The position numbers and the translations under genes are program-made. DNA of 64,000 nucleotides from NCBI GenBank assembly GCA_025355505.1, contig JANXZM010000083.1, positions 1 through 64,000 on the forward strand, given 5' to 3'. Each line of letters opens with the position of its first letter. Positions within the stretch are counted from its first letter, which is position 1. Source of the DNA: Acidobacteriaceae bacterium. GTDB taxonomy: Bacteria; Acidobacteriota; Terriglobia; Terriglobales; Acidobacteriaceae. This document shows, piece by piece, positions 43,573-58,552 of the stretch. The notes under the pieces are model-generated. The model made no database searches. It was given only the letters and a program-made list of their open reading frames with translations, and was not told the origin of the DNA.

Positions 43573-44685
43573 CTAGCTGCTGCTTTCCCGCGGGACTACG
43601 GGCACGCCATCAATTAGAAACTGGGTGCCGGAGACGACAACCTTGTCACCTGGTTTTACGCCGTCGAGAACGACATAGTTGTTGCCGACGATTTGGCCGA
43701 TCTGGAGCGGCTTTTGGTGGACAACGTATCCACCTTTGTGGTCAGGCTCAGCTACGAAAGCGAAATAGAGACCGCCGATTCGCGACACGGCAACGACTGG
43801 AACCACCGGCTTTTCCTGGCTGCTCCAGACCACACGGGCGCGGATGAACTGGGCGGTGCGCAGGCTGTCATTCGAGTTAGCGATGGTCGCTTTGACGAGC
43901 ACGGTTTGGGTCGCGGTATCCACCTGTGGCGAGATGAAGGTGATACGACTGGCGGCGAGCGAGCTTCCTGAAGCGTCGACGATCTGGACGGGAAGATTGA
44001 TCTTCAGCTGGGCAGACTTCTCGATGGGAACATAGATGTACGCTTCGAGGCTGCCGGGACGGTCGACGGTGGTGAGGGTGGAGGTGGTGACGACGCGGTC
44101 GCCGACGCGGACGGGAACATCACCGACCATGCCGGCACGCGGGGCAACCACTTTGTAGTAGTGCAACTGGACCTGCTGCTCGCTGACCTGAGCATCGAGG
44201 GAGTGCAGTTGGGCCTGGGCGGCGTCGAGGTTGGCGCGCGCCTGGTCGAGATCCTGCTTGCTGACTACGCCGGCATTGGCGAGGCCGTTGACGCGGTCGT
44301 AATTCTGCTGTGCCCATTTGACCTGGGCGACCTGAGCGGCGGTTGCGCTCACCTGGCTTTTGACCGCGGCCTGCTGCTTGGCGGGGTCGATTTGCATCAT
44401 GGGAGCGCCGGAGGTTACGCGTTCGCCAGAGTGCACGAAGATCTGGGTAATGATGCCTTCGACCTGCGGCATGACGACGGCGGAGTCGCGGGATTTCAAG
44501 GTGGCGACGTAGTCGGTAGAGTCGTCGACTTTTTGGGCCGTGGCGGTTTGGACATTGACCGGCATGGCTTGTGGGGCGGCCGCATTGGCTTCTTTGCTCT
44601 TGCCGCAGGCGGTGGTGAGGAGAAGTGCGGCCAGAAGGGCGGCGGGCAGAATCAGAGATGACGTATTCGTAAAGGGTCTAGACAT
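43573..44685 (-). CDS. RND periplasmic adaptor (membrane fusion) lipoprotein
   Basis: Connects the RND pump with an outer-membrane channel. The 370-residue lipoprotein has a signal peptide and lipobox (LLLTTACGKSKE), a lipoyl/hairpin region (VMPQVEGIITQIFVHSGERV; VVAPRAGMVGDVPVRVGDRV), a coiled-coil hairpin (about 105-165) and beta-barrel and membrane-proximal domains. It is directly upstream of the transporter gene (93 bp gap) and surely co-transcribed. Confidence 0.93.
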   Translation of the reverse strand: MSRPFTNTSSLILPAALLAALLLTTACGKSKEANAAAPQAMPVNVQTATAQKVDDSTDYVATLKSRDSAVVMPQVEGIITQIFVHSGERVTSGAPMMQIDPAKQQAAVKSQVSATAAQVAQVKWAQQNYDRVNGLANAGVVSKQDLDQARANLDAAQAQLHSLDAQVSEQQVQLHYYKVVAPRAGMVGDVPVRVGDRVVTTSTLTTVDRPGSLEAYIYVPIEKSAQLKINLPVQIVDASGSSLAASRITFISPQVDTATQTVLVKATIANSNDSLRTAQFIRARVVWSSQEKPVVPVVAVSRIGGLYFAFVAEPDHKGGYVVHQKPLQIGQIVGNNYVVLDGVKPGDKVVVSGTQFLIDGVPVVPRESSS

Positions 44686-44748
44686 ATGGTCACGCGTAGT
44701 GAAATGCCTCGGGCTATTGAAAAGCTAGTTTCCGAGGAGGTGTGCCGT

Positions 44749-44826
44749 CAGCGGCTAAAGCCGCAGTTTATCTTGCAATACTTACGGCGCGGGTGAAGCC
44801 GCGCCCCTTCAAAGCAAAATCAAAAC
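44749..44826. repeat. Dispersed repeat copy (ctaaagccg family)
   Basis: CAGCGGCTAAAGCCG, about 25 unique bases, then GGGTGAAGCCGCGCCCCTTC and an A-rich end. Very similar to 48535-48611. It separates the pump operon from ltaE. Confidence 0.7.
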
Positions 44827-44938
44827 CCAGCTTCGGCCACGGCAACTTCGGCCATACACAATATTAGATCAACCATATAGATTCCGGGTAAGGGCCGGAG
44901 GCTCCGAAGAATTTTTAGTTCTGCTAAATTGTTTTGTC

Positions 44939-45982
44939 ATGAAACCAAGCCGAAGTTTTGCGAGCGACAACAATGCGGTGGTACATCCCGAGGTGCTGGA
45001 GGCGATCCGGCGCGCCAACGAGGGGCATGAGGTGGGGTATGGCGACGATCCGCACACGGAATCGGCGGTGGGGAAATTCCGGGAGCAATTTGGAGCCAAA
45101 GTTGCGGTCTTCTTTGTTTTTAATGGGACGGCGGCGAATGTGCTGAGCTTGCAGGCGCTGACGCGGCCGTTTCATGCGGTGCTGTGTCCGGAGCTGTCTC
45201 ATATTTATACGGACGAATGTGGGGCGCCGGAAAAATATACGGGCTGCAAGCTGGTGCCTCTGGCAGCGCCGGACGGAAAGCTGACGGTGGAAACGGTGGC
45301 CCATGCGTATCACGGAATAGGGGACCAGCATCATGTGCAGCCGCGGGTGATTTCGATTACGCAATCGACCGAGATGGGGACCGTATATAAGGCGGCAGAG
45401 GTTGAGGCACTGGCGCGGTTTGCCCACGAGCGGAAGATGTTTCTGCATATGGATGGGGCGCGGATTTCAAACGCGGTGGCGGCGCAGGGACTGACCCTGC
45501 GGCAGGCGACGGGCGATTTGGGAGTGGATGTGCTTTCGTTTGGCGGGACGAAGAACGGGTTGATGGGCGTGGAGGCGGTGGTGTTCTTTCGTCCGGAACT
45601 GGCGGAGGATTTCTTATTTGTGCGCAAGCAGGGGATGCAGTTGGCATCGAAGATGCGGTATATGTCGGTACAGATGGAGGCGCTGCTGACGAACGATCTT
45701 TGGCGGCGGAATGCGGAGCAGGCGAACCGGATGGCGCGACTGCTGGAACAGGAAGTTAAGAAGATACCGCGAGTCAAGATTGTGTATCCCGTGGAGGCGA
45801 ATGGGGTGTTCGCGCAAGTTCCTCGGGAGGCTATTCAGAAGATACAGGAGCGGTACTTCTTCTATGTGTGGAGCGAAGAGGAGTCGGTGGTGCGGTGGAT
45901 GTGCTCGTTCGACACGACGGAGGAGGATGTTCGGAAGTTTGCGGAGTTTGTGGGCGGAGTGGTGAGGGACCTCGCAAACTGA
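44939..45982 (+). CDS. ltaE: Low-specificity L-threonine aldolase-like PLP enzyme
   Basis: A fold-type I PLP enzyme that splits L-threonine or allo-threonine to glycine and acetaldehyde. The 347-residue product has FASDNNAVVHPEVLEAI, GYGDDPHTESAV, the substrate-loop FFVFNGTAANVL, MDGARISNA, and the PLP lysine in SFGGTKNG. Length fits. Cytoplasmic. No operon partner. Confidence 0.88.
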   Translation: MKPSRSFASDNNAVVHPEVLEAIRRANEGHEVGYGDDPHTESAVGKFREQFGAKVAVFFVFNGTAANVLSLQALTRPFHAVLCPELSHIYTDECGAPEKYTGCKLVPLAAPDGKLTVETVAHAYHGIGDQHHVQPRVISITQSTEMGTVYKAAEVEALARFAHERKMFLHMDGARISNAVAAQGLTLRQATGDLGVDVLSFGGTKNGLMGVEAVVFFRPELAEDFLFVRKQGMQLASKMRYMSVQMEALLTNDLWRRNAEQANRMARLLEQEVKKIPRVKIVYPVEANGVFAQVPREAIQKIQERYFFYVWSEEESVVRWMCSFDTTEEDVRKFAEFVGGVVRDLAN

Positions 45983-46067
45983 AGCCCCCGCCCAGCCCTG
46001 AAAAGGTCGTCTGATTTCCGCGGGAACGAGGGGAAGCCCCATCGCTACAGGCGGAAGATCGGCGCAC

Positions 46068-46307
46068 CTATTTCTTGGCAGCCCTGACCTTGGCCCAGCG
46101 TGCCCTCTGCGCGGCCGCGATTCTCCTGCGTCCTGCAGCTGAAATGGTTCGCTTCTTGGGAGTTACTACTAATCCACTCTTGCTTCCGTGCAGTAAAACG
46201 TTTCCAAAAGCAGTTAGGGCAGCGGTTACGCGGTGGAGTTCATCCTCAAGCCGCGTTCGTTCGTGCTGGAGTTGTTTGACTACGGATTGAATCAACGTTT
46301 TTGCCAT
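46068..46307 (-). CDS. Small basic helical protein
   Basis: A 79-residue protein with an N-terminal coiled-coil-like helix (VVKQLQHERTRLEDELHRV) and a strongly basic end (RRRIAAAQRARWAKVRAAKK), reminiscent of nucleic-acid-binding tails. Similar short proteins occur in Acidobacteriota, but I cannot name a family. A perfect palindrome CACTTATAAGTG (46321-46332) lies just upstream of its start. Confidence 0.6.
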   Translation of the reverse strand: MAKTLIQSVVKQLQHERTRLEDELHRVTAALTAFGNVLLHGSKSGLVVTPKKRTISAAGRRRIAAAQRARWAKVRAAKK

Positions 46308-46320
46308 AAACTGAGTTTAT

Positions 46321-46332
46321 CACTTATAAGTG
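46321..46332. promoter_or_regulatory. Candidate operator: 12-bp palindrome
   Basis: CACTTATAAGTG, perfect palindrome, 14 bases upstream of the gene at 46068-46307 on the minus strand. Could bind a dimeric regulator, possibly the product itself. Confidence 0.35.
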
Positions 46333-46486
46333 GGACAACAAGGCAGTTCCCGTGGAAGGGGCTGATTGACTGGCGGATAATTCCCGTTTTTGGATGAACT
46401 CCCGTACTGGGCAAGGACTTAAGACTAGAGGCGCGGACCCTGCAAAGCGACGGGACCGAGTGGACAGAGCGTAAACGAAAAAGCCG

Positions 46487-46780
46487 CTACCAGCCCAGGT
46501 CAGACCCACGGTCGGATTTCCGATCGGAGTTACTTTGCTCGCCGAAGAGGTTACGCTTCTTATAAGACATGACCATCAATCCAATACAGATACCCATGGG
46601 CGGGAAGATAAGGACGAGGATTCCGCTTTTAAGGGCTTGAATCATGCGCGGTCCGGCGGCGGCGGCCTGAGTGTAGCAGAGGGCACAACTCTGGCTCCAG
46701 GCAGGCAGCGAGAGGCCTGCGAGCAAGGCGAACAGGAGCGCGGCTCTCATGCAGCGGGCCGTATTTGTTGCTTGTCTCAT
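46487..46780 (-). CDS. Small membrane protein at the end of the oxidase operon
   Basis: A 97-residue protein with a signal peptide (ending PAWSQ), a CALCYTQAAAAGPRM motif just after it, then one transmembrane helix (ILVLIFPPMGICIGLMVMS) and a basic tail. It starts 25 bp after the subunit IV gene. Such proteins are seen at the end of acidobacterial cytochrome oxidase operons. The CALC pair might bind copper or heme, but this is speculation. Confidence 0.6.
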   Translation of the reverse strand: MRQATNTARCMRAALLFALLAGLSLPAWSQSCALCYTQAAAAGPRMIQALKSGILVLIFPPMGICIGLMVMSYKKRNLFGEQSNSDRKSDRGSDLGW

Positions 46781-46805
46781 ACTTGTCCTCGACTTCTCTC
46801 CGAAG

Positions 46806-47099
46806 TTAGTGCGAGTGCATACGGAGCAACCGGAAACTGTCGGACCAGATCATGTTCATCATGAAAACAACAAAGAGGGTACAGGGGATCAAAACGAGGA
46901 ACAGGCTGTGGCGCTCCTGACCGAGATGCATGAAGTACATGACGCCCAGGGACGCTTGGAGAAAGCCCAAGAATAGCATCAGGGCGAGCGACGGTCCCGA
47001 CATCATGGCAAAAAGAACCTGGAACACGGCGATGCTTAAAATAGCCCCGTAGACGATGAAGGTTGTGGTCATGCTATTTGAATTTCCGGCTGCGCTCAT
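46806..47099 (-). CDS. coxD: Cytochrome c oxidase subunit IV (prokaryotic type)
   Basis: A 97-residue, three-helix membrane subunit of heme-copper oxidases (FIVYGAILSIAVFQVLFAM; LALMLFLGFLQASLGVMYFM; SLFLVLIPCTLFVVFMMNM). The motif QASLGVMYFMHL is typical of bacterial subunit IV. Start at ATG 47099 is preferred; a GTG at 47138 would extend it by 13 residues. Confidence 0.8.
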   Translation of the reverse strand: MSAAGNSNSMTTTFIVYGAILSIAVFQVLFAMMSGPSLALMLFLGFLQASLGVMYFMHLGQERHSLFLVLIPCTLFVVFMMNMIWSDSFRLLRMHSH

Positions 47100-47153
47100 A
47101 GGTTTCGTATTCTCCTCGGCAAATTTCCAGCGCTTCACGTTATCGCTTGAATC

Positions 47154-47780
<627 letters not shown>

Positions 47781-47815
47781 GGAGCCTCCTGATCAGTAAC
47801 AGTTTTAGACAGACG

Positions 47816-48505
47816 TTACAGCTTTAACCAAACAACGAAAAGCAGGTACATCCAAAGCATGCCCATGAAATGCCAGTAGTAAGACGTTGAGTCCATGGTG
47901 CTCTTGCGCAGGATGGGCACAGGAGTGCGCAGGAGATAGATGACTCGCAACAAGCCACCGAGGCCGCCGAGAACGTGAACGGCGTGGACGGCGGTAAGCA
48001 CGTAGAAGAACGAACTGTTGGGATTGGTGGCGAGATAGAGCCCTTCGGAGCGCAGTTGCAACCAAGCCAGATACTGGCCGGCTACGAAGGCACATCCAAG
48101 AGCCAGGGTGGCGCCGAGCCATTGCATGGCTTGAGAACGAGATACACCTTCACCGCGGATGTAGCTTGCGATTGTTTTGCGCGCGAATTCGAGCGTGAGA
48201 CTGCTGAGAACCAGGATCGCGCTGTTGAGATAAAGGATGCGCGGTATGAGGATGTGCTGCCAATCGTTTCCGGAGCCCTGCCGGACGATGAGGGCACTGG
48301 TGAGGGCAGCGAACGACATGGCGATGGCGGCGAGAGCGACCCAGATGCCGGTGCGGGCGGGCTCGGGGGAGCGCTCGGCAACGGCACGGAGTTCTCCGGC
48401 ACCGGGAATGAGACCGGCCGAGCCACCGCCGCCATGCATTCCGGGGAAAGGCCTGGAGGGCGGCTGCGCGTTAATTGCTGGTGGCTGGGGGACAGTTGTG
48501 GCCAT
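47816..48505 (-). CDS. Second cytochrome c oxidase subunit III-like protein
   Basis: A 229-residue protein with a Pro/Gly-rich N-terminus (about 1-45) then five TM helices. VHAVHVLGGLGGLLRVIYLL and SYYWHFMGMLWMYLLFVVWL match subunit III C-terminal signatures. It precedes the canonical subunit III gene by 35 bp, so the operon encodes two such subunits. It may replace a helix pair or act as an assembly partner. Confidence 0.8.
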   Translation of the reverse strand: MATTVPQPPAINAQPPSRPFPGMHGGGGSAGLIPGAGELRAVAERSPEPARTGIWVALAAIAMSFAALTSALIVRQGSGNDWQHILIPRILYLNSAILVLSSLTLEFARKTIASYIRGEGVSRSQAMQWLGATLALGCAFVAGQYLAWLQLRSEGLYLATNPNSSFFYVLTAVHAVHVLGGLGGLLRVIYLLRTPVPILRKSTMDSTSYYWHFMGMLWMYLLFVVWLKL

Positions 48506-48534
48506 ACTGCACTTGCGCCTCTCTTCTAAAACCT

Positions 48535-48659
48535 CAGCGGCTAAAGCCGCCGTTTATTTTGGGGCACTTATGGCGCGACTGAAGCCGCGCCCCTTGAAAA
48601 CAAAATCGAAATCTTAGATATTCCGCACGCTGTGAAGATGGGGCAAGCCCCGTCTCTAC
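48535..48659. repeat. Repeats between coxA and subunit III: ctaaagccg copy plus GTAG hairpin
   Basis: 48535-48611 is a second copy of the 44749 repeat. At 48637-48659, GACGGGGC-TTG-CCCC(A)TC on the minus strand is preceded by GTAGA, another GTAG-tagged hairpin. The 184-bp gap inside the operon is filled by these two repeats. Confidence 0.7.
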
Positions 48660-48689
48660 AGCGGGCATTCAAGCAAACCAAGGCAGCAT

Positions 48690-50459
48690 TCACGAAGGAA
48701 TAGGAGTTTCCACCTGTTCGGGCGAATTCTGCATGATGAAATCTTCCTTCGCACCCTCGACGCTGTATTGGTAAGGGTCGTGATAAACGACAGGGTGGAT
48801 ACCACCGAAGTTGTTCCACGGGGGCGGCGAAGGGATTGTCCATTCCAGCGATGTTGCGTTCCACGGGTTCTCCGGAGCGACCGGACCCCAGAAGCGGCTG
48901 TGGACAAGGTTGTACAGGAAGATAAGCTGGGCTGCTCCGGTGCAGAGAGCGGCGATGGTGATGAACTTGTGCACCGGCATCAGGGGCGCCATGAAATCAT
49001 CCACGAACGACGAGTACCGGCGGACGTTGCCGGCCAATCCGAGATAGTGAAAGGGCATGAAGATGCAGTAAGTGCCGACAAACGTCAACCAGAAGTGAAT
49101 TTTCCCGAGGGTTTCGTTCATCATGCGGCCGGTCATCTTGGGCATCCAGAAGTAAGTTCCGGCAAAGATACCGAAGATGGCGGCAACACCCATGACCAGG
49201 TGGAAGTGCCCGACGACGAAGTAAGTGGCGTGGAGGTAGATATCAATCGCGGGTTGAGCGAGAAAGAATCCGCTGACGCCGCCGCTCACGAACATGGAGA
49301 TGAAGCCCAAGGCAAACAGTGAAGCGGCGGTGATCTGCAGGCGCGAACCATACAGGCTGCCGAGCCAGATGAGCGCTAATATGGTCGCCGGGATGGTGAT
49401 CATCAGAGTCGGGAAGGAGAACACTAGAGCGGAGAATGGATTCATGCCGCTCAGGAACATGTGATGTCCCCAGACCATATAACTGAGAAAGCCGATGGCC
49501 ATCATGGAACCGATGACGACCTTGTGACTTAGCAGGGGCTTACGCATGCTGTTGATCAGGATGTGGCTGACGATGCCCATGGCCGGCAGAATGGCGATGT
49601 ACACCTCGGGATGTCCGAAGAACCAGAAGAGGTGCTGCCAGAGGAGCGGCGAGCCTCCGGAGTGTGGCTGTAAGCGGTCGCTAACAACCAAGCCGGCAGG
49701 GATGAAGAAACTGGTGCCGGCAACGCGATCGAGGATCAGGAGCAAGCAGGCCGGGAGCAACACGGCGAAGGCCAGCAACGCGATGCAGGAGGTAATGAAC
49801 CAAGCCCAGGTGCTGATAGGCATGCGCATCAGGGTCATACCTTTGGCGCGGAGATCCAGGGTGGTGGCGATGAAGTTCAGCGAACCCAGCAGCGACGCGA
49901 TGCAGAAGATCGCGATCGAGATCCCCCAGAGATTTTGTCCCATGCCCAAGCCGGGGCCAGCATCTTTACCGATGGCGCTGAGCGGAGCATAGGCGGTCCA
50001 TCCGGAGATGGGCGGGCCGTCGGGGACGACGAACGCGGCGAGCAATACGACGAAGGCAACGAAGGTGGTCCAGAACGACATCATATTAAAGCGGGGGAAG
50101 GCCATATCTTCGGCGCCGATCTGGATGGGCAAAAAGTAGTTGCCGAAGGCGGCGAAGGGTGCGTTGGTGAGCACGAAGAAAACCATCAACGTGCCGTGCA
50201 TGGTGAGCAAAGAAAGGTAGTACTCGGGCGTTATTAAGCCGTCGGGCGCGCCGTTCTTGGAGAGCAACTGGAGGCCGGGAATGGCGGCGTTTGGCCAGAC
50301 GAGGTGAAAGCGCATAAGCCAGGAGAGGAACATCCCGATAAAGACGGCGACCAGCGCGAGGGCGTAGTACTGCAAGCCGATGATCTTGTGATCGAGGCTG
50401 AACACATACTTCCAGATAAAACTTTGGGGAGGACCGTGCTGCGCCGCTGCTTCCGACAT
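48690..50459 (-). CDS. coxA: Cytochrome c oxidase subunit I (heme-copper, A-type)
   Basis: Catalytic subunit reducing O2 to water and pumping protons. 589 residues from ATG 50459 behind GAGG. About 12-14 TM helices. Metal-ligand motifs: LLTMHGTLMVF (low-spin heme His), WFFGHPEVYIAILPAMG (CuB His, with the cross-linked Tyr and the D-channel Glu of the A1 type), WGHHMFLSGMNP (CuB His pair), HATYFVVGHFHLVMG (heme a3 and low-spin heme His). The Cyc2-like and copper proteins upstream suggest cytochrome c or cupredoxin as donor. Confidence 0.95.
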   Translation of the reverse strand: MSEAAAQHGPPQSFIWKYVFSLDHKIIGLQYYALALVAVFIGMFLSWLMRFHLVWPNAAIPGLQLLSKNGAPDGLITPEYYLSLLTMHGTLMVFFVLTNAPFAAFGNYFLPIQIGAEDMAFPRFNMMSFWTTFVAFVVLLAAFVVPDGPPISGWTAYAPLSAIGKDAGPGLGMGQNLWGISIAIFCIASLLGSLNFIATTLDLRAKGMTLMRMPISTWAWFITSCIALLAFAVLLPACLLLILDRVAGTSFFIPAGLVVSDRLQPHSGGSPLLWQHLFWFFGHPEVYIAILPAMGIVSHILINSMRKPLLSHKVVIGSMMAIGFLSYMVWGHHMFLSGMNPFSALVFSFPTLMITIPATILALIWLGSLYGSRLQITAASLFALGFISMFVSGGVSGFFLAQPAIDIYLHATYFVVGHFHLVMGVAAIFGIFAGTYFWMPKMTGRMMNETLGKIHFWLTFVGTYCIFMPFHYLGLAGNVRRYSSFVDDFMAPLMPVHKFITIAALCTGAAQLIFLYNLVHSRFWGPVAPENPWNATSLEWTIPSPPPWNNFGGIHPVVYHDPYQYSVEGAKEDFIMQNSPEQVETPIPS

Positions 50460-50549
50460 TTACTCACCTCGAGTAAGCTGAACTAAGTTTCGTCTGACCG
50501 GTGATCTTAAATCGATGCGCCGTCCCTAAAGAGAGTGCGGGAGAACTGG

Positions 50550-50630
50550 GCCGTCCCTCCGGGACTCGAACCATTTCTGCAACCTCTGCCAGCGCTGAAG
50601 CGCTGGGCTACGCTGGTTGGCCCCTAACGG
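50550..50630. repeat. Palindromic repeat between coxB and coxA
   Basis: CCAGCGCT-GA-AGCGCTGG (50589-50606) lies within a longer repeat that also contains CCGTCCCTCCGGGACT. The 189-bp coxB-coxA gap holds nothing else; it may weaken transcription between the genes. Confidence 0.6.
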
Positions 50631-50648
50631 GGCTGGAATGGCCGCGAG

Positions 50649-51449
50649 TTACTGGGCCGCTTTGTCTTTCAACCACTTATCGAAATCTTCCTGGGACAGA
50701 ACCGATAAATAGGCCTTCATGTTGTAGTGGCCAAGTCCGCAGAGTTGGGTACAGACGATTTCATACTGGCCGGTTTTGGTTGCGGTAAAGTGGACTCCGA
50801 GATCGAGGCCGGGGACAAAATCCTGCTGGATGCGGAGTTCGCGCACATAGAAGGAGTGCCCGACATCTTTGGAGTGCATCATCAGATTGATCTGGCGATT
50901 GACCGGGACGGCGAGTTCGCCGGCTATGATGTCGTCGCGAGAATCAACGTCGTGTTCGGGATCGAGTCCGAAGAAATTCTGGTTGCCTTCGTTAATCTTG
51001 TCGGGATGCAGAGTGCCAAACTTACCGTCCGCGCCGGGATAGCGGAAGTAGAAGGCGAACTGCCCGGCCTGGGTCTGGATGGTGAGGGAATCCTTCTCAA
51101 GCGGAGCAAAATAAACCGAGGCCCAAGCCTTTTGGCCGATGATGCCGAGGGCGAGAATTTCCGTTCCGACGAAAAGAAAAGCGGCGATGACGAGGTATTT
51201 GGCTCCGCCCGGGAAGCTTTTGAGCTTGTCATTTTTGCCGCGGCCGGCAAACTGCCAGACGAAGAGCGCAAGGACGAGTTGCGCGGCGAGAAAGGCGATA
51301 CCAGCTTCCCACATGGTCTGGTGCATCTGCTCGTCAATCGCCGCGCCGTGCGTGGAAATATCCACGGGAGGCCCCCAGTAATTCATCACGATGGGGACGG
51401 CCGACAAAATCGCGATAATCGCAACTGTGACTGCAAACAATTTTCCCAT
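50649..51449 (-). CDS. coxB: Cytochrome c oxidase subunit II with CuA site
   Basis: Accepts electrons at the binuclear CuA centre. The 266-residue product has two N-terminal TM helices (about 5-23 and 50-68, with a third hydrophobic stretch at 85-105), then a cupredoxin domain. CuA ligands: H198 in DVGHSFYV, and CTQLCGLGHYNM (C233, C237, H241, M244). The residue between the cysteines is Gln instead of the commoner Glu, as in ba3-type CuA. No C-terminal fused cytochrome c is present. Confidence 0.93.
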   Translation of the reverse strand: MGKLFAVTVAIIAILSAVPIVMNYWGPPVDISTHGAAIDEQMHQTMWEAGIAFLAAQLVLALFVWQFAGRGKNDKLKSFPGGAKYLVIAAFLFVGTEILALGIIGQKAWASVYFAPLEKDSLTIQTQAGQFAFYFRYPGADGKFGTLHPDKINEGNQNFFGLDPEHDVDSRDDIIAGELAVPVNRQINLMMHSKDVGHSFYVRELRIQQDFVPGLDLGVHFTATKTGQYEIVCTQLCGLGHYNMKAYLSVLSQEDFDKWLKDKAAQ

Positions 51450-51523
51450 TGGTCATCTCCCGCTTGCCCTGCATAAGTACGCACGCGGCGGGGAGGTTCG
51501 TCTTCCTCTCCGCCGCTGATGCG

Positions 51524-52225
51524 CTAGTAGGCCTTGGCCTTGAAGGTGAAGTTTTGTTCTTTGGTTTCTGTGCCGGTGATGGTGATGTCGGCCGTCTGGG
51601 TGCCGTAGTCCTCATGCCAGGCTGTGATGGTGTACTTGCCGGGAGGCAGGTTGGGCAGCTTGAAATCGCCTCCACCCTTACTTACGTCGTAGTGATTCGT
51701 ATTGAGCACCGCGAAATAGCCGTGCATCCAGGGGTGGACGTTGCACTTCACCGAGATGAATTCGGGCTTGTCGTATTTCTCGGAAATGGGGGGCGTGCCC
51801 GGGGGCTGGGATTTGTTCCACTCGCGGTTTACTTTGGCCAGGGGGTGAATGTTGTGGGAGGTCTGGTCGGCGTTGACGATCTTGAGTTCCTGGTTGACGT
51901 GCATGGGCAGAATGTGCGGAAGATACTGGCAGCCCTTCTGCTCGTAGGTGACGGCTTGCGACGGAACCTGACCGTCGTCGGAAGCCCCGGACGAAACGTA
52001 GACCACCACGTTTTCCAGTGAATTGCTGGGTCCGGTCACAACCGTCTCGTTAGTCACGGGTGTGGCATGCTGCTTGGCGCAGCTGGGTTCTTTGCCCATG
52101 TCGATGGGTTTTTGTTTAGCGGGCGTGCCGGTGTAGGTCACTTTGCCGCTAATCGTTCCCGCGAACATCAGGGACGAACAGACGAGCAGCGTTAAAAGAG
52201 TTAGCAGAATATTCTTAGTGCGCAT
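51524..52225 (-). CDS. Exported cupredoxin-like / carboxypeptidase-regulatory-like protein
   Basis: A 233-residue exported protein (signal peptide MRTKNILLTLLTLLVCSSLM; start at ATG 52225 behind GGAGGA). The centre is a beta sandwich with a likely type 1 copper site: H124 (TSHNIHP), then C161, H164 and M167 in KCNVHPWMHGYF. The end is a carboxypeptidase-regulatory-like strand region (KLPNLPPGKYTITAWHEDYG). It lies between the diheme cytochrome c and coxB genes, where rusticyanin-type donors occur in iron oxidation operons. Copper binding is predicted, not shown. Confidence 0.65.
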   Translation of the reverse strand: MRTKNILLTLLTLLVCSSLMFAGTISGKVTYTGTPAKQKPIDMGKEPSCAKQHATPVTNETVVTGPSNSLENVVVYVSSGASDDGQVPSQAVTYEQKGCQYLPHILPMHVNQELKIVNADQTSHNIHPLAKVNREWNKSQPPGTPPISEKYDKPEFISVKCNVHPWMHGYFAVLNTNHYDVSKGGGDFKLPNLPPGKYTITAWHEDYGTQTADITITGTETKEQNFTFKAKAY

Positions 52226-52270
52226 TCGAGTAAAATCCTCCTCGGGTTGGATATTCACTTACCGAGTATA

Positions 52271-53236
52271 TTACTGGCCGCCACCGGGCGACTTGTTATC
52301 GGCGGGGGCGGGGGCGGGGGCGGCTGCTGGCGCCGGGTTTTTATCCACGTACGGGGGAATAACTCCGTGCGCCGCCGACAGGATTTCGTTCTCCTTGCCG
52401 TGACGGTTGATCTGCAACGTACGGAGGAAATGGACGAGATCCCAGGCGTCGTTCGGCTGAATCACATCCGCGAAGGAAGGCATGGGCGTGCCGTCCACGC
52501 CAGTCATGAAGATCTTGTAGATATCCTGATTGGTGGAACCGCACTTGAAGCGGGAATCGTCTTTGCCCAAGGCGAAGTTATAGGGACGAATTGGGTTGTC
52601 TTTGCTATCGGTGAGGGTTCCGGAAGACGGGCCGTCGCCCTTGCCGGCCGGGCCATGACACTTCCAGCATTCCAGCTTGGTGAATAACAATTTGCCGTGG
52701 GCGATGCTGTCGATGGTGACCGGAGGTTCGGCGGGAACCTTGATCGGGTCGCCGGCTTTTTCCTTGTCCCAACGGGGTGAAAAGATCTTGATATAGGCCA
52801 CCAGGTCGGCGCGCTGCTGCCGGGTGAAGGTATTCCAGATCGGCATGTTGGAGTTGGTGATGCCGCGCTGGATGGTGTTGTAGAGATCTTCATCGGTGGG
52901 CAGGGTGCCGGTCAGAGTGGAGCGGCACTTGAAGGTGGCGCTCGTAAAATCGCGCGGCTTCGGATCAAGCCAGACCGCGTTCTCACCATTGGCATCGCCC
53001 AGATCTCCGTGACAGCCGGCGCAATAGCGGCGGTAGTCGGACTTCGCGGCAGCGGCGTGGCCGGTGATATTGCCGATGTGGCTCTCCATGGGCTTGAGCA
53101 CGAGAGGCGGCGTCGGCCCTACGTCGGGTGCATCCTGAGCGAAGGCCGGAGCGGCGAACCCGACGGCGAGGACCATCCCCAGGATCGCGGTAAAAAAAAT
53201 CGCGCCGATAAAACGCATTGGCTTCAAGCTGTTCAT
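52271..53236 (-). CDS. Exported diheme cytochrome c
   Basis: A 321-residue protein with signal peptide ending PAFAQ. Two c-type heme sites: CAGCH (C72-H76) and CWKCH (C190-H194). Probable axial methionines are M131 (MPIW) and M252 (TPMPSF). The C-terminus is Ala/Pro-rich. Two cytochrome c domains in tandem make it similar in design to Cyc1/c4-type carriers that receive electrons in the periplasm. Start ATG 53236 is preferred over the longer open frame. Confidence 0.85.
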   Translation of the reverse strand: MNSLKPMRFIGAIFFTAILGMVLAVGFAAPAFAQDAPDVGPTPPLVLKPMESHIGNITGHAAAAKSDYRRYCAGCHGDLGDANGENAVWLDPKPRDFTSATFKCRSTLTGTLPTDEDLYNTIQRGITNSNMPIWNTFTRQQRADLVAYIKIFSPRWDKEKAGDPIKVPAEPPVTIDSIAHGKLLFTKLECWKCHGPAGKGDGPSSGTLTDSKDNPIRPYNFALGKDDSRFKCGSTNQDIYKIFMTGVDGTPMPSFADVIQPNDAWDLVHFLRTLQINRHGKENEILSAAHGVIPPYVDKNPAPAAAPAPAPADNKSPGGGQ

Positions 53237-53301
53237 AGTCAGCACCCTTAAACCGAAGTCAGCGCCGGCGAATCGAGTTCGCGAGCGGGCCATCCTGGTG
53301 G

Positions 53302-54708
53302 TTAGAAGTCGAAGTCAAATCCCATTAACAGCTCGCTGCTGGTCAGGTTGGTGTTACTCACCGGCGATGTTCCATCCTGATGGAACCAGTTGTACTCGGT
53401 GTGCCAGGCCAAGCCCGCGCGGCTGGTCATGATCGGGTTGTAGCGATAGCCGACGGTGTAGCTGGTGATGTTGCCAAGATTGGAAGGAGTGCCCGGCGTC
53501 GACTGCTGCGACATCCTGATCGTCTCGTAGCGGCCGATGAAGATGAGCTGCGGGTTGTAGACATAGTGGGGTTCGAAGAGGACACCGTTCCAGGTTGGCG
53601 CGCGCGAGCCTGCGGCGAGCACGGTTCCCGGCGTGTTATTGTTCACGGCAACCCCGTCGATCAAGTCGCCGTAGCCCTGCCCGAACCACGCGCTGTCTGA
53701 TCCGTGTTGAGTGACGACCGTGAGGTCAACATGCGGGCCGAAGTAGAACTGCCCGACAAAGCCTTCGCGGCTGTAGCCCTTGTTTCCAGTTCCTGAACCA
53801 GGCACGGGCGCCCCGCCGTCGGTGAGCCAGGTGGTGGGAGCTTCGCCAACCATGGCGTAGAAGCCGAGGCGTTGCACACCCAATCTGCCGGCATCGAAGG
53901 CCTGACTGCCGGTAAAGAATGCGGAATAGGAATTGGAGCCATAGGGCAAGCCTACACTGCCGTTATTTGAGCTGAGAAGCGAAGCGGAGTAGCGGGTGCG
54001 ATCGTTCAAGGAGTGCCCCATCACCTCGACGCCGAGCTGGTTGCTCCCTATTTGTCCAAAGATGTTGCCGCTACCCACTGGCATGAAGTGGTAGAGCTGG
54101 TAAATGCCGCCGTTGGCTGTCAGCGTCAAAGGGCGCTTCTCAGAAAGCAGGTTGTCAAGCTCGAACTTGCCCAGCTTCACGTTGAGCCAGGGACTGCCAA
54201 AGACGTTGTCGAGTCGCGCCATAACGGTTTCGAAGTGGAAGGAACCGGTGGCGTCGGAGGAAGGGAGGACGTAGAAGGAAATGTTTTTCTCCAGCGTGCC
54301 GCCGGTGTGGAAGTCAAGACCGGTGAGATCAAAGCCGGAAGAAGTAATCTTCGCCTCCCTGCTGCCGTCACCGCTGTCGACCCGCACTTTGTTGGTGCTG
54401 ACGCGATGCCAGAGCGGAACGATGCGGAAGGTGACCGGCCAATACCCGGGATTCTGCCAAATGGGAGCATCGCGGTCGTTCATGAGCTGGTAGCCGTTGT
54501 CCTTGAATTTTTGGCCGAAGAAATTGAGCATGGGCCAACTTTCATGACAGGCGGAGCAACGCAGGCCGTACTTCCTGGCAAAGGCAGGGAGAGCGCTCGC
54601 CGACTGACTGGCGCCCAGGATCAGGAAGACTAGCGCGAAAGCAGCGGCGAGGACGGAAGATACCCGCCGCGGCTTCTGACAGCGATGAGACTGCGCCCAC
54701 AACCGCAT
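53302..54708 (-). CDS. Cyc2-like fused monoheme cytochrome-porin (putative outer-membrane electron carrier)
   Basis: A 468-residue exported protein from ATG 54708, six bases after GAGGAG. Signal peptide (about 1-38), then a short cytochrome domain ALPAFARKYGLRCSACHESW (C51, C54, H55), then about 400 residues of alternating aromatic beta strands ending in LLMGFDFDF, whose terminal Phe is a hallmark of outer-membrane barrels. A CxxCH just after the signal peptide, followed by F-G-x-x-F-K-x-x-G-Y and a porin, is the design of Cyc2 iron oxidases, and the length is close to theirs. It opens an operon with diheme cytochrome c, cupredoxin and oxidase. I infer Cyc2-like function; barrel type must be verified. 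Confidence 0.65.
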   Translation of the reverse strand: MRLWAQSHRCQKPRRVSSVLAAAFALVFLILGASQSASALPAFARKYGLRCSACHESWPMLNFFGQKFKDNGYQLMNDRDAPIWQNPGYWPVTFRIVPLWHRVSTNKVRVDSGDGSREAKITSSGFDLTGLDFHTGGTLEKNISFYVLPSSDATGSFHFETVMARLDNVFGSPWLNVKLGKFELDNLLSEKRPLTLTANGGIYQLYHFMPVGSGNIFGQIGSNQLGVEVMGHSLNDRTRYSASLLSSNNGSVGLPYGSNSYSAFFTGSQAFDAGRLGVQRLGFYAMVGEAPTTWLTDGGAPVPGSGTGNKGYSREGFVGQFYFGPHVDLTVVTQHGSDSAWFGQGYGDLIDGVAVNNNTPGTVLAAGSRAPTWNGVLFEPHYVYNPQLIFIGRYETIRMSQQSTPGTPSNLGNITSYTVGYRYNPIMTSRAGLAWHTEYNWFHQDGTSPVSNTNLTSSELLMGFDFDF

Positions 54709-54858
54709 GCTGCACTCCTCAGACAAATTCACAGATTTTGCGGAAACCCAATTCTACAACGCGCAAACGACGAAAGCCCAGCAACGACCAAGCGCAAAGT
54801 CAACTGCCTAGCCTCCCGCGTCCGAGCAGAACGCTATAACTTCTGCATCGAAGCGCGA

Positions 54859-54880
54859 CCACCACACTTTAATGTGGTGG
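54859..54880. promoter_or_regulatory. Perfect palindrome in the divergent promoter region
   Basis: CCACCACA-N6-TGTGGTGG, followed by CTACCCTGTGTAG. It sits between the Cyc2-like operon (minus) and the gene at 54978 (plus), a place suited for a regulator controlling both. No known family consensus is matched with certainty. Confidence 0.45.
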
Positions 54881-54977
54881 ATACTACTACCCTGTGTAGC
54901 GAAGCGCAACAGGATTATTTACAAATTGTTTACATCGTGCCGCGAGAGAAACGGGAGAGTGGCGATCGGGGTGCTTG

Positions 54978-56057
54978 ATGCGCGAGTTGACAGCGGTCAA
55001 CCCAGCGTATGAGACTCTTGCAACAGGAACAGCGGAGCCGGTCGTGATCTGGGAGAAGAGTTTTCGTGGTATGGGACTGAATGGTTGGGGTGCGTTTCGT
55101 GGAGTTGCACTTTACTTCCCACCTTATTTGCGGGCGGCCGCAGTTTTTCTTCTGCTCATTTCGCTTCTAGTGACGGGAGCGGCGATCCCCACGCAATGCC
55201 GCGAAAAAGATGTTCTTCAGTACGGTGAGGGTCTGATTGTGAATGTTCCGATGCCGGAGGCCGAAGTCGCGCCGGTGGTGGAAGACGTGGCGCAGAACAC
55301 GATCATCCGGGGGACGAAGGAATACAACAAAGACGAATATGTGGGGGGAGCGGTGGCGGCCACGTCTACACCGGTGTTCCCGGCATGGACGGAGGGAGGC
55401 AAGGTCTTCTACAAGGTGCGGAAGCAGGCGCTGGATCCGCGCAATTTCAAAGACAGCAGCGATGTTGGAACGCTGGCCGTTCGATATGTGGTGCAACCGC
55501 AGGGCGACAAGAATACGGTTTTGCGCATTGACGCCGTGTTTGTGGAAGATTTTCGGCACAGCGTCCACAAATCGAATGGCTCGGTGGAGAGCAGCGAGTA
55601 CAAGGACATTCACGACCGGCTCGACGCGGTTGAGCTGATGAAAAAGGAAAACGCCGAGGCTGAAGAAGCAAAACGGGAACGACTAGCGAAGCAAAACTTC
55701 GGCATGGGCGGTGATACGGTTGTGCTGAGCACTCCGCCCGCTACGGCGAAGTCCGGCGAAAGCGCGAAGGGCGAGGCGGTTCCAAAATCATCCGCAATGT
55801 TGCAAGCGCCGGCGTATGAGCAGCCCGAATCACTGGAACAACACGTTGCCGAGTTGCGCCGGCAGGTGGAGCGATTGGTCAAGAAGCCCGGGGCTCCGCT
55901 GAAGTCGGCACCGTTCCACACCGCGAGCACACTGAAATCATTGGAGCCTGGCGTCGAAGTTCTAATTCTGATTTCAACGCCTTACTGGTACGGGGTGGAG
56001 ACGCACGACGGACAGCATGGATGGATTCGGCGGGACCAGTTGGAGCAGGCGCCATGA
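54978..56057 (+). CDS. Membrane-anchored protein with SH3-like C-terminus
   Basis: A 359-residue protein (ATG 54978) with one transmembrane helix (YLRAAAVFLLLISLLVTGAA), a region rich in beta strands (about 110-200), a charged helix (ELMKKENAEAEEAKRERLAK), and a C-terminal SH3-like domain (SLEPGVEVLILISTPYWYG). Its stop overlaps the next start. No named family, but domains of this type bind peptidoglycan or proteins. Confidence 0.6.
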   Translation: MRELTAVNPAYETLATGTAEPVVIWEKSFRGMGLNGWGAFRGVALYFPPYLRAAAVFLLLISLLVTGAAIPTQCREKDVLQYGEGLIVNVPMPEAEVAPVVEDVAQNTIIRGTKEYNKDEYVGGAVAATSTPVFPAWTEGGKVFYKVRKQALDPRNFKDSSDVGTLAVRYVVQPQGDKNTVLRIDAVFVEDFRHSVHKSNGSVESSEYKDIHDRLDAVELMKKENAEAEEAKRERLAKQNFGMGGDTVVLSTPPATAKSGESAKGEAVPKSSAMLQAPAYEQPESLEQHVAELRRQVERLVKKPGAPLKSAPFHTASTLKSLEPGVEVLILISTPYWYGVETHDGQHGWIRRDQLEQAP

Positions 56058-57427
56058 CCGGGCGGAGATTGCCAGTCGCTCCTGTGACTTCGTCAATACC
56101 TCGCCGATTACTGCGCGCCACGCTGTGGGCTGCGTTTCTGCTGGTCGTGCTTGCGATGGCCGCAGCGCAGAGAGGTAGTGCTGAGGCAGGCTCGTACGAG
56201 CGCAGCTACCGTCAGTCGAAAAGCGCGGTGGAAAAAGCACTGAAGGAGCTGCAGCCGTCGATGAGTGGACGGCTGCCGGTACTGGAAGGATTCGCTTCGC
56301 CTGGCGATCGTCCCTTGAGCCGCTACCAGCGGGCGTATTACCAATCCGCGGTGCAGGTGACGTCGACTGCGTCCGGGGGATCGGTGGTGCGGGTGAGCAC
56401 GAAGGTGACGGCATGGTATGCGGATTCAGTTTCAACTCGTTCGGGATACCAGCTGCTCGCTTCGAATGGTCGACTCGAATCCGATCTGCTGGACCAGTTG
56501 ACCGATGTGCTGGGTAGCAACTCTGGTGCGACGACGTCGGGCGGGAGTTCTGGTGGAAATTTCCCAGCGATCGCCACGCCGGCGGCGTCGGCGAAACGGC
56601 CTGGCACTGCGGAGCCGACCATCTCGGCACCGATGCCCAGGGCGCCGGAAACCGGGCACACGTTCTCGTCTCCCACGTTGGAACGGGGTTTGCCGGATCA
56701 GCAACGGTCGGATAGGCAACAATTGCAGCAGAAATCCGGCGATCAACCAGCCACCGGATTGCAGGCGGAGGCGGCTAGTTTGGAGGAAGTGCTCAAGAGC
56801 CAGGGGCATCCGAAGAATCTGGTCGCAATCAAGAAATCAGGAACTCCGGTGGTTGCGACTCCCAGTTTGAATGGCAAGACTTTGTTTTTGGCGAGCACGC
56901 ACGATGAGTTTGAGATGCTGGATTTCAATGCGGACTGGGTGCATGTGCGGATTTCCGGTTTGTCACGGGGATGGATCTGGCGAACCAGCCTGGAGATGCC
57001 GGAGGGCATTTCGGACATTCCGCCGGCGGGCGCGAGTGCCGCACCGGCTGCGCCCGATCTGTTTCAGGTGACGCGCGAAGAGACTGCGCCGTTTCCGGGG
57101 GATTGGGAACCGCTGCGAGGCAGGAACGTAAAAATCATTTCGGTGCAGAAGATCCAGGAAAACGCGAAGGATAGCGGCGCGCGAGCGAAGCTGGAATTCG
57201 CAAAATTTTTGCTCGATAAAGACTACGCGGAACTGGCGGCAAAATCACAGGAGCTCGCCGGAATCGTGTTGATATTCGACTCGGTCGATGGCGGCATGAT
57301 CGCCGCAACGCTCGCGACCGTTCAGGCATGGAAGGCGGGCACGTTATCCGACGCGGCTCTTTGGCATCAGTGTTTTTTTGATCCGCCGGAGACGTTCAAT
57401 GCTTCCAGCCCTGCCGGCGGGCACTAG
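56054..57427 (+). CDS. Exported protein with SH3-like domain, partner of the gene before
   Basis: A 457-residue protein from ATG 56054 overlapping the previous stop (ATGA). Signal/TM segment LWAAFLLVVLAMAAA, a helical/beta region (about 45-150), a Ser/Pro-rich linker, an SH3-like domain with LASTHDEFEMLDFNADWVHV (about 285-320), and a C-terminal alpha/beta region. Coupled translation suggests a joint role in the envelope. No family named. Confidence 0.6.
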   Translation: MTGRRLPVAPVTSSIPRRLLRATLWAAFLLVVLAMAAAQRGSAEAGSYERSYRQSKSAVEKALKELQPSMSGRLPVLEGFASPGDRPLSRYQRAYYQSAVQVTSTASGGSVVRVSTKVTAWYADSVSTRSGYQLLASNGRLESDLLDQLTDVLGSNSGATTSGGSSGGNFPAIATPAASAKRPGTAEPTISAPMPRAPETGHTFSSPTLERGLPDQQRSDRQQLQQKSGDQPATGLQAEAASLEEVLKSQGHPKNLVAIKKSGTPVVATPSLNGKTLFLASTHDEFEMLDFNADWVHVRISGLSRGWIWRTSLEMPEGISDIPPAGASAAPAAPDLFQVTREETAPFPGDWEPLRGRNVKIISVQKIQENAKDSGARAKLEFAKFLLDKDYAELAAKSQELAGIVLIFDSVDGGMIAATLATVQAWKAGTLSDAALWHQCFFDPPETFNASSPAGGH

Positions 57428-57640
57428 TTGCCGCCACCAGTTGCTAAGGACTGGGTTTGGTGCGAGCATCGTGGTGGCTAGACGCTGGGATCTTTATAGT
57501 TTTGGCTTGACATTGAACTGATGGCGCGTTACGAATGCTGTTTTTTGACGTTGGTTGGTTCCGTGGGGATTTGATTTGTTCGGGACTGCTGGTTTGAACT
57601 AAGCCGCCGGATGAGGGCGGAAGGGGGCAAACGGGCAAGT

Positions 57641-58552
57641 ATGGGGTTTATGTTGCAACCATTTGTTTTTCTGCTGCGCGATTACGCCGAACTGACCAAG
57701 GCGCGCATTACGACTTTGATCGTGCTTACGGCATGGTGCGGCTACTTTTTTGGCGCGCACCGGATGGGCGTGTCGTCGTGGTCGCTGGGCCTGCTTCATG
57801 CCTTGTTCGGCATTGCGCTGGTTTCGAGCGGAACGGCGGCGCTGAACGAAGTGCTTGAATCGAAAGTGGACGCTCGGATGCGGCGGACGGCGTTGCGCCC
57901 TCTGCCTTCGGGACGCATGACCAAGGCACACGCGGCCGCGGTTGGACTGGCGCTGACTCTGGGCGGTTCCGTTTATCTGGCCTTCTATGCCAACTTACTA
58001 ACTGGGTTATTGGTGTTTTTGACCGCAGTGGTGTATCTGGCGGCGTACACACCGCTAAAGAAGGTTTCTCCTATTTGCACATTTGTGGGCGCGTTTCCAG
58101 GAGCGATGCCGGTGGTGTTGGGTTGGACGGCGGTTCGGGGCAAACTGGAAATCGAAACTCTGATCCTTTTTGCGATTATGTTCGTGTGGCAGTTCCCGCA
58201 TTTTTTGTCGATTGCATGGCTTTATCGCGAGGACTACGCGCAAGGCGACATTCGCATGTTGCCGGTGGTGGATCCCGATGGAAAGTCCACCGTGTGGCGG
58301 ATTTTGGCCTATTCCGCGGCATTGATACCCGTGAGCCTTATGCCGGTTGCGTTAGGAATGGCGGGACGGATTTATTTGGTGGGCGCGGTCCTGATGGGCG
58401 CGGCGCTGTTTCGCGTATCGATGGGAATGGCGTATCCGCAACTGCCGGCAACGGCGGCGGCCTCCAAGCCTTCGGCTCGACGCTTGCTGCGGGCTACGAT
58501 CATCTATCTGCCTGCGTTGTTTGCGCTCATGATGGCTAACTCGAGTAGTTAG
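57641..58552 (+). CDS. ctaB: Protoheme IX farnesyltransferase (heme O synthase)
   Basis: Transfers a farnesyl group to heme B to make heme O, precursor of heme A for cytochrome oxidase. The 303-residue protein (ATG 57641; ATG 57611 is an alternative) has about eight to nine TM helices. UbiA-type motif NEVLESKVDARMRRTALRPLPSGR replaces the NDxxDxxxD form; second motif YREDYAQGDIRMLP. It belongs to the oxidase locus although on the opposite strand and 3 kb away. Confidence 0.93.
   Translation: MGFMLQPFVFLLRDYAELTKARITTLIVLTAWCGYFFGAHRMGVSSWSLGLLHALFGIALVSSGTAALNEVLESKVDARMRRTALRPLPSGRMTKAHAAAVGLALTLGGSVYLAFYANLLTGLLVFLTAVVYLAAYTPLKKVSPICTFVGAFPGAMPVVLGWTAVRGKLEIETLILFAIMFVWQFPHFLSIAWLYREDYAQGDIRMLPVVDPDGKSTVWRILAYSAALIPVSLMPVALGMAGRIYLVGAVLMGAALFRVSMGMAYPQLPATAAASKPSARRLLRATIIYLPALFALMMANSSS

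What the first reader, a model, noticed from the sequence alone, without database searches (positions are those of the whole stretch)
46487..54708. Rus-operon-like chain: Cyc2-like porin-cytochrome, diheme cytochrome c, cupredoxin and cytochrome oxidase
Transcription order on the minus strand is CxxCH porin, diheme cytochrome c, type 1 copper-like protein, coxB, coxA, coxC, coxC, coxD, small membrane protein. In Acidithiobacillus ferrooxidans the rus operon is cyc2, cyc1, ORF, coxB, coxA, coxC, coxD, rus. The same set of functions, in nearly the same order, in what looks like an acidobacterium suggests a complete outer-membrane-to-oxygen electron chain, possibly Fe(II) oxidation. Sequence shows motifs and order; the physiology is inference.
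Basis: partly seen in the sequence, partly recalled or inferred. Interest (0 to 1): 0.87.

Follow-up and report, generated by a model that had tools for sequence, protein, structure and literature searches.

The report
Rus-like Cyc2-to-oxidase electron operon
A bacterium of an unnamed, probably soil-dwelling group carries a nine-gene cluster that looks like a wire from the outside of the cell to oxygen, built in the same order as the iron-oxidation operon of a mine-water bacterium but largely from different parts.

Summary
Nine co-directional genes (46487-54708, minus) encode a Cyc2-type monoheme cytochrome (porin part not proven), a diheme cytochrome c, a cupredoxin-like protein, CoxB, CoxA, two CoxC, CoxD and a small CxxC protein. 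The window protein has the published Cyc2-defining motif. The whole order recurs in 32 of 49 related loci; 7 more are cut by contig ends, 10 have no cox genes beside cyc2. The order equals the Acidithiobacillus rus operon, which I recovered and compared. The parts are mostly not orthologous: the Cyc2 cytochrome domain is shared, the cupredoxins show no detectable similarity, and CoxA is 30-33% identical. Cyc2 also falls in another half of the family tree (p-AU 0.003).

New: the operon oxidase lost the K-channel lysine and both Mg-site carboxylates (41/41, 41/41, 40/40 readable); family paralogs mostly keep them (24/27, 23/27, 22/26), and the rus oxidase also lacks them (9/9, 9/9, 8/8). In another family the same cytochrome trio stands before a cbb3 oxidase.

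Best reading: an independently assembled, rus-like chain from an extracellular donor to oxygen. Fe(II) is the likeliest donor but is untested.

The parts
53302..54708 (-). cyc2-like: leader peptide, one-heme cytochrome domain (ALPAFARKYGLRCSACHESWPML), then a long candidate beta-barrel ending in F
   Evidence: motif criteria from PMC8406198
52271..53293 (-). diheme cytochrome c (CAGCH, CWKCH); relative of PDB 6h5l_B and of the C-terminal half of a CcoO-diheme fusion in G278
51524..52258 (-). cup: exported cupredoxin-like protein (H135/H138, C172-H175-M178) with C-terminal CarboxypepD_reg-like domain; copper site read from the motif
   Evidence: ligand conservation
50649..51449 (-). coxB, CuA motif CTQLCGLGHYNM (Mg-site Glu replaced by Gln)
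48690..50459 (-). coxA, A-type with D-channel Asp/Asn and HPEVY kept, K-channel Lys (R. sphaeroides K362) and Mg-site Asp (D412) lost
47816..48505 (-). coxC, first copy
47154..47780 (-). coxC, second copy
46806..47138 (-). coxD (COX4_pro)
46487..46780 (-). small protein with conserved CxLCYTQAA, last gene of the 32 full-order loci; function unknown, possibly oxidase assembly
   Evidence: (no family)
57611..58552 (+). ctaB (heme O synthase), other strand nearby; not part of the operon

Best explanation
An extracellular-electron-donor oxidation chain ending in oxygen. A donor outside the cell (most likely Fe(II)) reduces the single heme of the Cyc2-type outer-membrane protein; the exported diheme cytochrome c carries electrons over the periplasm; the type-1-copper-like cup protein and/or the diheme pass them to CuA of a specialised aa3 oxidase (CoxBACCD), which reduces O2 using a D-channel but no K-channel lysine and no Mg-site carboxylates. 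The chain works like the rus operon but was assembled from mostly non-orthologous parts. Shown: genes, order, conservation, motifs, cofactor ligands, lost oxidase residues. Inferred: barrel fold, copper binding, direction and order of electron flow, donor identity.
For: Order kept in 32 of 49 loci, 7 others cut by contig ends. Strict Cyc2 motif in 42 of 49 loci; six others differ from it by one residue and keep CXXCH, and one gene (L117) is broken in this stretch. C-terminal F or Y in 46 of 46 ORFs examined. cyc2 and this CoxA type go together: 38 genomes with both, 11 cyc2 only, 5 CoxA only, 146 neither, of 200 (odds ratio 101, not corrected for kinship). Oxidase: Lys lost in 41 of 41, Asp in 41 of 41, CoxB Glu to Gln in 40 of 40 readable; 27 family paralogs keep them in 24, 23 and 22 (of 26 readable); 9 rus rows lack them in 9, 9 and 8 (of 8 readable). 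Cup ligands and both heme motifs conserved at 95% or more (25 and 22 rows). In G278 cup-cyc2-cyc1 precede cbb3 genes, with the same diheme type fused to CcoO, so the trio looks like an input module for terminal oxidases.
Against: The only fold model failed (pLDDT 27.6); BBP2 porin hits in 4 of 53 proteins scanned, best 3e-5, and Porin_O_P in one. My own strand scores do not show a barrel. The window protein groups with neither the rus Cyc2 nor the other FARQTG Pseudomonadota Cyc2. Keffer et al. call function in Cluster 3, where I think it belongs, most uncertain (PMC8406198 section 13). No RuBisCO. 10 of 49 cyc2 loci have no oxidase genes beside them, 5 of 43 genomes with this CoxA type have no cyc2 match, and one genus (3 loci read) lost the oxidase residues with no cyc2 found.
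Confidence: 0.66

Rival explanations
1. Same conduit and oxidase, but the physiological donor is not Fe(II): reduced humic substances, another cell, Mn(II) or a mineral surface.
For: Hosts are scattered over 27 of 79 sampled genera, no RuBisCO in this genome, and Cyc2 placement is away from the FARQTG half that holds the rus Cyc2. Keffer et al. say Cyc2 may have additional functions.
Against: Keffer et al. report biochemical evidence of iron oxidation for three Cyc2 representatives, one in each cluster (PMC8406198 section 13); gene order and lost oxidase residues match the rus system.
Confidence: 0.3
2. The operon was inherited from, or shares recent ancestry as a unit with, the Acidithiobacillus rus operon.
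For: Same gene order; detectable homology of the Cyc2 cytochrome domain.
Against: Cup without similarity (probability 0.5%), diheme and CoxB only superfamily-like; CoxA nests among K-bearing family paralogs, far from rus CoxA; grouping of the Cyc2 clade with rus and related rows rejected.
Confidence: 0.04
3. An ordinary aa3 operon in which the upstream genes serve outer-membrane metal or haem sensing or assembly, with no outer-membrane electron entry.
For: Barrel not demonstrated; G351 has the oxidase block with no cyc2, cyc1 or cup in the locus.
Against: Three redox-type proteins with conserved cofactor ligands, Cyc2 motif kept, trio also beside a cbb3 oxidase.
Confidence: 0.1
4. Electrons flow outward: the Cyc2-like protein and diheme are a terminal Fe(III)-reducing exit and the oxidase is a separate use of the operon.
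For: Direction cannot be read from sequence.
Against: Same-strand order with an oxidase and a cupredoxin-like protein; the diheme type is fused to an oxidase subunit in G278.
Confidence: 0.05

Closest known systems
rus operon of Acidithiobacillus (cyc2-cyc1-cup-coxBACD-rus-ctaTBA)
   Same: Same first functions in the same order; Cyc2 motif; both oxidases lack the K-channel Lys and Mg-site carboxylates
   Different: No rusticyanin found, no ctaA/B in the operon, duplicated coxC, extra small protein; cup unrelated by profile; CoxA distant and keeps the D-channel residues, which rus CoxA lacks
Cyc2 / Cyt572 cytochrome-porin family
   Same: AXPXFAR[QK][TY], CXXCH, PXL, length over 365 aa
   Different: FARKYG half of the tree, apart from rus and other FARQTG Pseudomonadota Cyc2; Cyt572 itself could not be placed, but PMC10654088 reports its network neighbours to be Acidobacteria and Nitrospira (passage)
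petI-type uphill branch of A. ferrooxidans (recalled), compared with the cyc2b-cup2-PNOR-Rieske-cytochrome b cluster of this genome
   Same: Rieske and cytochrome b in the same genome as, and here beside, an outer-membrane-type cytochrome gene
   Different: Contains a Cyc2-like gene, a cupredoxin and a pyridine-nucleotide FAD/4Fe-4S protein; lies outside the window
Diheme cytochrome of PDB 6h5l_B (named a conserved hypothetical cytochrome in the entry; that it is the anammox protein kustc0457 is recalled)
   Same: Sequence match E 3.9e-52 over residues 83-293
   Different: Here in an aa3 oxidase operon

Membership tests
Cyc2 family (Keffer et al. 2021) | single CXXCH with AXPXFAR[QK][TY] upstream and PXL downstream | tested here: met
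   window protein; 42 of 49 related loci strict, 6 one residue off, 1 broken
Cyc2 family (Keffer et al. 2021) | length at least 365 aa with signal peptide | tested here: met
   468 aa from the ATG; hydrophobic leader ending ASA|LP judged by eye only
Cyc2 family (Keffer et al. 2021) | C-terminal outer-membrane beta-barrel | tested here: inconclusive
   fold failed; BBP2 in 4 of 53, Porin_O_P in 1 of 16 proteins; own scores no better for rus Cyc2
Cyc2 family (Keffer et al. 2021) | falls in a clade with the rus Cyc2 or other FARQTG Cyc2 | tested here: not met
   separate half of tree, 100/98 support; p-AU 0.003 for holding it with rus and FARQTG non-Zeta rows; Cyt572 cluster not tested
Cyc2 family (Keffer et al. 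2021) | Fe(II) oxidation | not testable with these tools
   needs biochemistry
[quoted passage not shown]
   with an extra coxC; coxD of the rus loci was not annotated by me
rus operon | rusticyanin present | tested here: not met
   TIGR03095: no match in the own genome, 96% complete
rus operon | cup homologous to rus-operon cup (AcoP) | tested here: not met
   hhalign probability 0.5%; the rus profile has 7 near-alike rows, so distant kinship is not excluded
rus operon | Cyc1 homologous (cytochrome c4 type) | tested here: inconclusive
   hhalign probability 95.8% over two generic heme domains; no tblastn hit at 1e-3; best PDB match is 6h5l_B
rus operon | CoxA of the rus type | tested here: not met
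   30-33% identity; nests with family paralogs

The most novel reading that the evidence does not exclude
A bacterial family evolved, independently of Acidithiobacillus, a complete rus-type chain for oxidising an extracellular donor (Fe(II)) with O2, including the same loss of the K-channel lysine and Mg site in its oxidase, and pairs it with a second Cyc2-like cluster (cyc2b-cupredoxin-pyridine nucleotide oxidoreductase-Rieske-cytochrome b) as an uphill branch; loss of these oxidase residues would then be a recurrent mark of extracellular-donor oxidases.
Probability: 0.33. Interest if true: 0.87.

Novelty: new variant of a known kind. Interest (0 to 1): 0.72.

Why it matters
If true, respiration of iron or another extracellular donor would extend through a bacterial family (27 of 79 sampled genera) for which I found no such report in the papers I could search (listings). 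The operon order would be a case of convergent assembly, and the shared residue losses give a testable sequence mark for oxidases fed from outside the cell. It also bears on a published claim that iron oxidisers hold an ancestral oxidase (PMC8239418, abstract, passages and section 12 read): here a derived oxidase would do the same job.

Tried and rejected
Structure: the one AlphaFold job (window Cyc2 plus six Acidithiobacillus-type Cyc2) gave pLDDT 27.6 and is ignored. Two home-made beta-strand scores did not separate even rus Cyc2 from controls. PDB gave nothing for the Cyc2 clade, Pfam nothing for the window member.

Considered and rejected: rus transfer; loss of the oxidase residues as a strict mark of cyc2 linkage (one genus and five genomes show it without a cyc2 match).

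Selection and dropped rows: the 49 loci come from 45 of the 48 other genomes with a match (fragments in G306, G361 and G466 were not in that count). The 67% identity line for the operon CoxA type was set; the genome lists were typed. The 43 operon rows include the window and five genomes without a cyc2 match; the 27 paralogs were picked by me from the rest; of ten rus loci with CoxA, L141 was left out. One search used 36 of the 90 rows, without five long-branch rows, and its tested group was named after seeing the first tree. The motif count (42 of 46) was circular, because the search pattern asked for part of the motif; one search repeats it over all 49 loci. No ordinary porin was put in a tree. 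The L037:4948-5772 query was a wrong stretch and is not used. One search stopped with an error and was rerun; the first try at reading loci from files found none and was repeated.
Full report
What is there. Nine genes on the minus strand, spaced 8 to 189 bp, run cyc2-like, diheme c, cup, coxB, coxA, coxC, coxC, coxD, orf97 (families; heme and copper motifs). The Cyc2-like start is best put at ATG 54708, which has a GAGGAG site. The neighbours look unrelated: two proteins with weak SH3-like matches and ctaB on the other strand, a beta-eliminating-lyase (threonine aldolase-like) gene, an S1 protein. No RNA family reaches its threshold in 44000-58500.

Conservation. In the same phylum 78 of 297 sampled genomes have a match to the Cyc2-like protein at E <= 0.001, many of them to the N-terminal part only. 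In the same family 49 of 200 genomes, 27 of 79 genera, hold the clade at E <= 1e-20. [quoted passage not shown] of these ten, L104, L108, L114, L115 and L118 hold cyc2, cyc1 and cup together.

Is it Cyc2? Keffer et al. (PMC8406198; passages and section 13 read) define Cyc2 by one CXXCH, AXPXFAR[QK][TY] upstream, PXL downstream, length over 365 aa and a porin. The window protein meets all but the last, which I could not show. Over the 49 loci the strict motif is in 42; six differ by one residue (L099, L102, L103, L112, L114, L118) and keep CXXCH; L117 is broken there. The barrel part: the fold job failed; BBP2 was hit by 2 of 16 and 2 of 37 proteins, none of them among the ten rescanned, which include the six from outside the family; Porin_O_P was hit by L036 (E 0.024).

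Which Cyc2? I fetched 18 rusticyanin loci from named records with the rusticyanin sequence; seven of them hold cyc2 to rus of the operon. I also searched 299 Pseudomonadota genomes with a Cyc2 alignment (81 with a match). The tree splits into a FARQTG half (rus Cyc2, other Pseudomonadota, and a group from small genomes that I take for Zetaproteobacteria, unnamed in the call) and a mostly FARKYG half (the sampled proteins of the window's phylum and a second group of those small genomes); support 98 in 90 rows and 100/98 in 36 rows. Holding the window clade together with rus and the other non-Zeta FARQTG rows is rejected (p-AU 0.003; the group was named after the first tree). Cyt572, the tested Cluster 3 member, could not be fetched; PMC10654088 (passage) says its network neighbours are Acidobacteria and Nitrospira, so Cluster 3 is my guess.

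Comparison with the rus operon, gene by gene. Cyc2: homologous over about 50-60 N-terminal columns. Diheme: generic similarity (95.8%), with PDB 6h5l_B a clear relative (E 3.9e-52). Cup: no similarity to rus cup or rusticyanin. CoxB: CuA domain only. CoxA: 30-33% identity against 49-64%, mostly 61-64%, for 27 family paralogs. CoxC: weak. No rusticyanin found in the genome. The same order is therefore best read as parallel assembly or part-by-part replacement, not as one inherited unit.

The oxidase. Numbered by R. sphaeroides CoxI, the operon CoxA type lacks K362 in 41 of 41 readable rows and D412 in 41 of 41 (2 of 43 rows cut); its CoxB has Gln for E254 in 40 of 40 readable (3 of 43 not readable). 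Of 27 family paralogs read, 24 keep Lys, 23 keep Asp and 22 of 26 readable CoxB keep Glu. The exceptions are one genus with all three lost (L127, L229, L230), L226 (Gln) and L231 (Asn). Nine rus rows lack Lys and Asp (Asn instead), and 8 of 8 readable CoxB lack Glu. The D-channel Asp and Asn are kept in 42 of 42 readable operon rows and lost in 9 of 9 rus rows. The tree puts the K-less rows of the family in one clade of 42 rows, support 100, nested among K-bearing paralogs and far from rus; I read this as one loss in this family and another in the rus line. That E254 and D412 bind the Mg ion and K362 carries protons is recalled knowledge. K-channel loss in other A-family oxidases is published (PMC8239418, passages and section 12).

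Linkage. Of 200 genomes, 38 have both the cyc2 clade and this CoxA type, 11 cyc2 only, 5 CoxA only, 146 neither (kinship not corrected). Of the five, G147 has cup and a heme-motif propeller protein upstream of coxB, G351 has neither; in G345, G357 and G391 the contig ends just upstream of cup, cup and coxA. Some of the 11 are contig-end cases too, for example G379, G453 and G467.

The trio as a module. In G278, of another family, cup-cyc2-cyc1 are followed by ccoN and a CcoO fused to the same diheme type. This is the best evidence that the trio feeds electrons to a terminal oxidase.

A second cluster. The genome holds another Cyc2-like gene with cup2, a pyridine-nucleotide FAD/4Fe-4S protein, Rieske and cytochrome b. 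The order recurs in 7 of 8 family loci that I chose for holding such a gene; the eighth (L242) lacks cup2. It also recurs in L047, and as far as the short loci reach in L028 and L029. An uphill branch is a plausible but untested reading. Its heme motif departs from the strict Cyc2 motif (FSRQY).

Verdict. My searches of the open library (listings, and passages of PMC10654088, PMC8239418 and PMC8357290) showed no description of this operon; most subscription papers are not held, so this is weak evidence of novelty.

Noticed in passing
L046:9918-16195 (own genome, contig C15): Second Cyc2-like gene followed by a cupredoxin, a pyridine-nucleotide FAD/4Fe-4S oxidoreductase, Rieske and cytochrome b; order kept in 7 of 8 chosen family loci and in L047 of another family. 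Candidate reverse-electron-transport branch.
   Followed up: partly
L037:7800-13989: Cup-cyc2-cyc1 trio directly before cbb3 genes, with CcoO fused to the same diheme cytochrome type.
   Followed up: yes
L127, L229, L230: One genus with an aa3 oxidase that lost the K-channel Lys, Mg-site Asp and CoxB Glu with no cyc2 match; sister to the operon oxidase.
   Followed up: partly
L121:6652-8373: In G147 a virginiamycin-B-lyase-like propeller protein with a CxxCH and a CarboxypepD_reg domain stands upstream of cup-coxBA, where other loci have cyc2-cyc1.
   Followed up: no
L177/L200 (G680) and L178/L201 (G653): Small Pseudomonadota genomes (probably Zetaproteobacteria, unnamed) that carry two Cyc2 types, FARQTG about 400 aa and FARKYG about 450-470 aa, in opposite halves of the tree.
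   Followed up: partly
46487-46780: The small CxLCYTQAA protein closes the operon and relatives also follow the paralog oxidase operons read; possibly an oxidase subunit or copper chaperone.
   Followed up: no
L114:8750-9115 and L118:9472-9855 (turned to the cyc2 strand): An OmpR-like winged-helix regulator gene lies directly upstream of cyc2 in two trio-only loci (named by eye).
   Followed up: no
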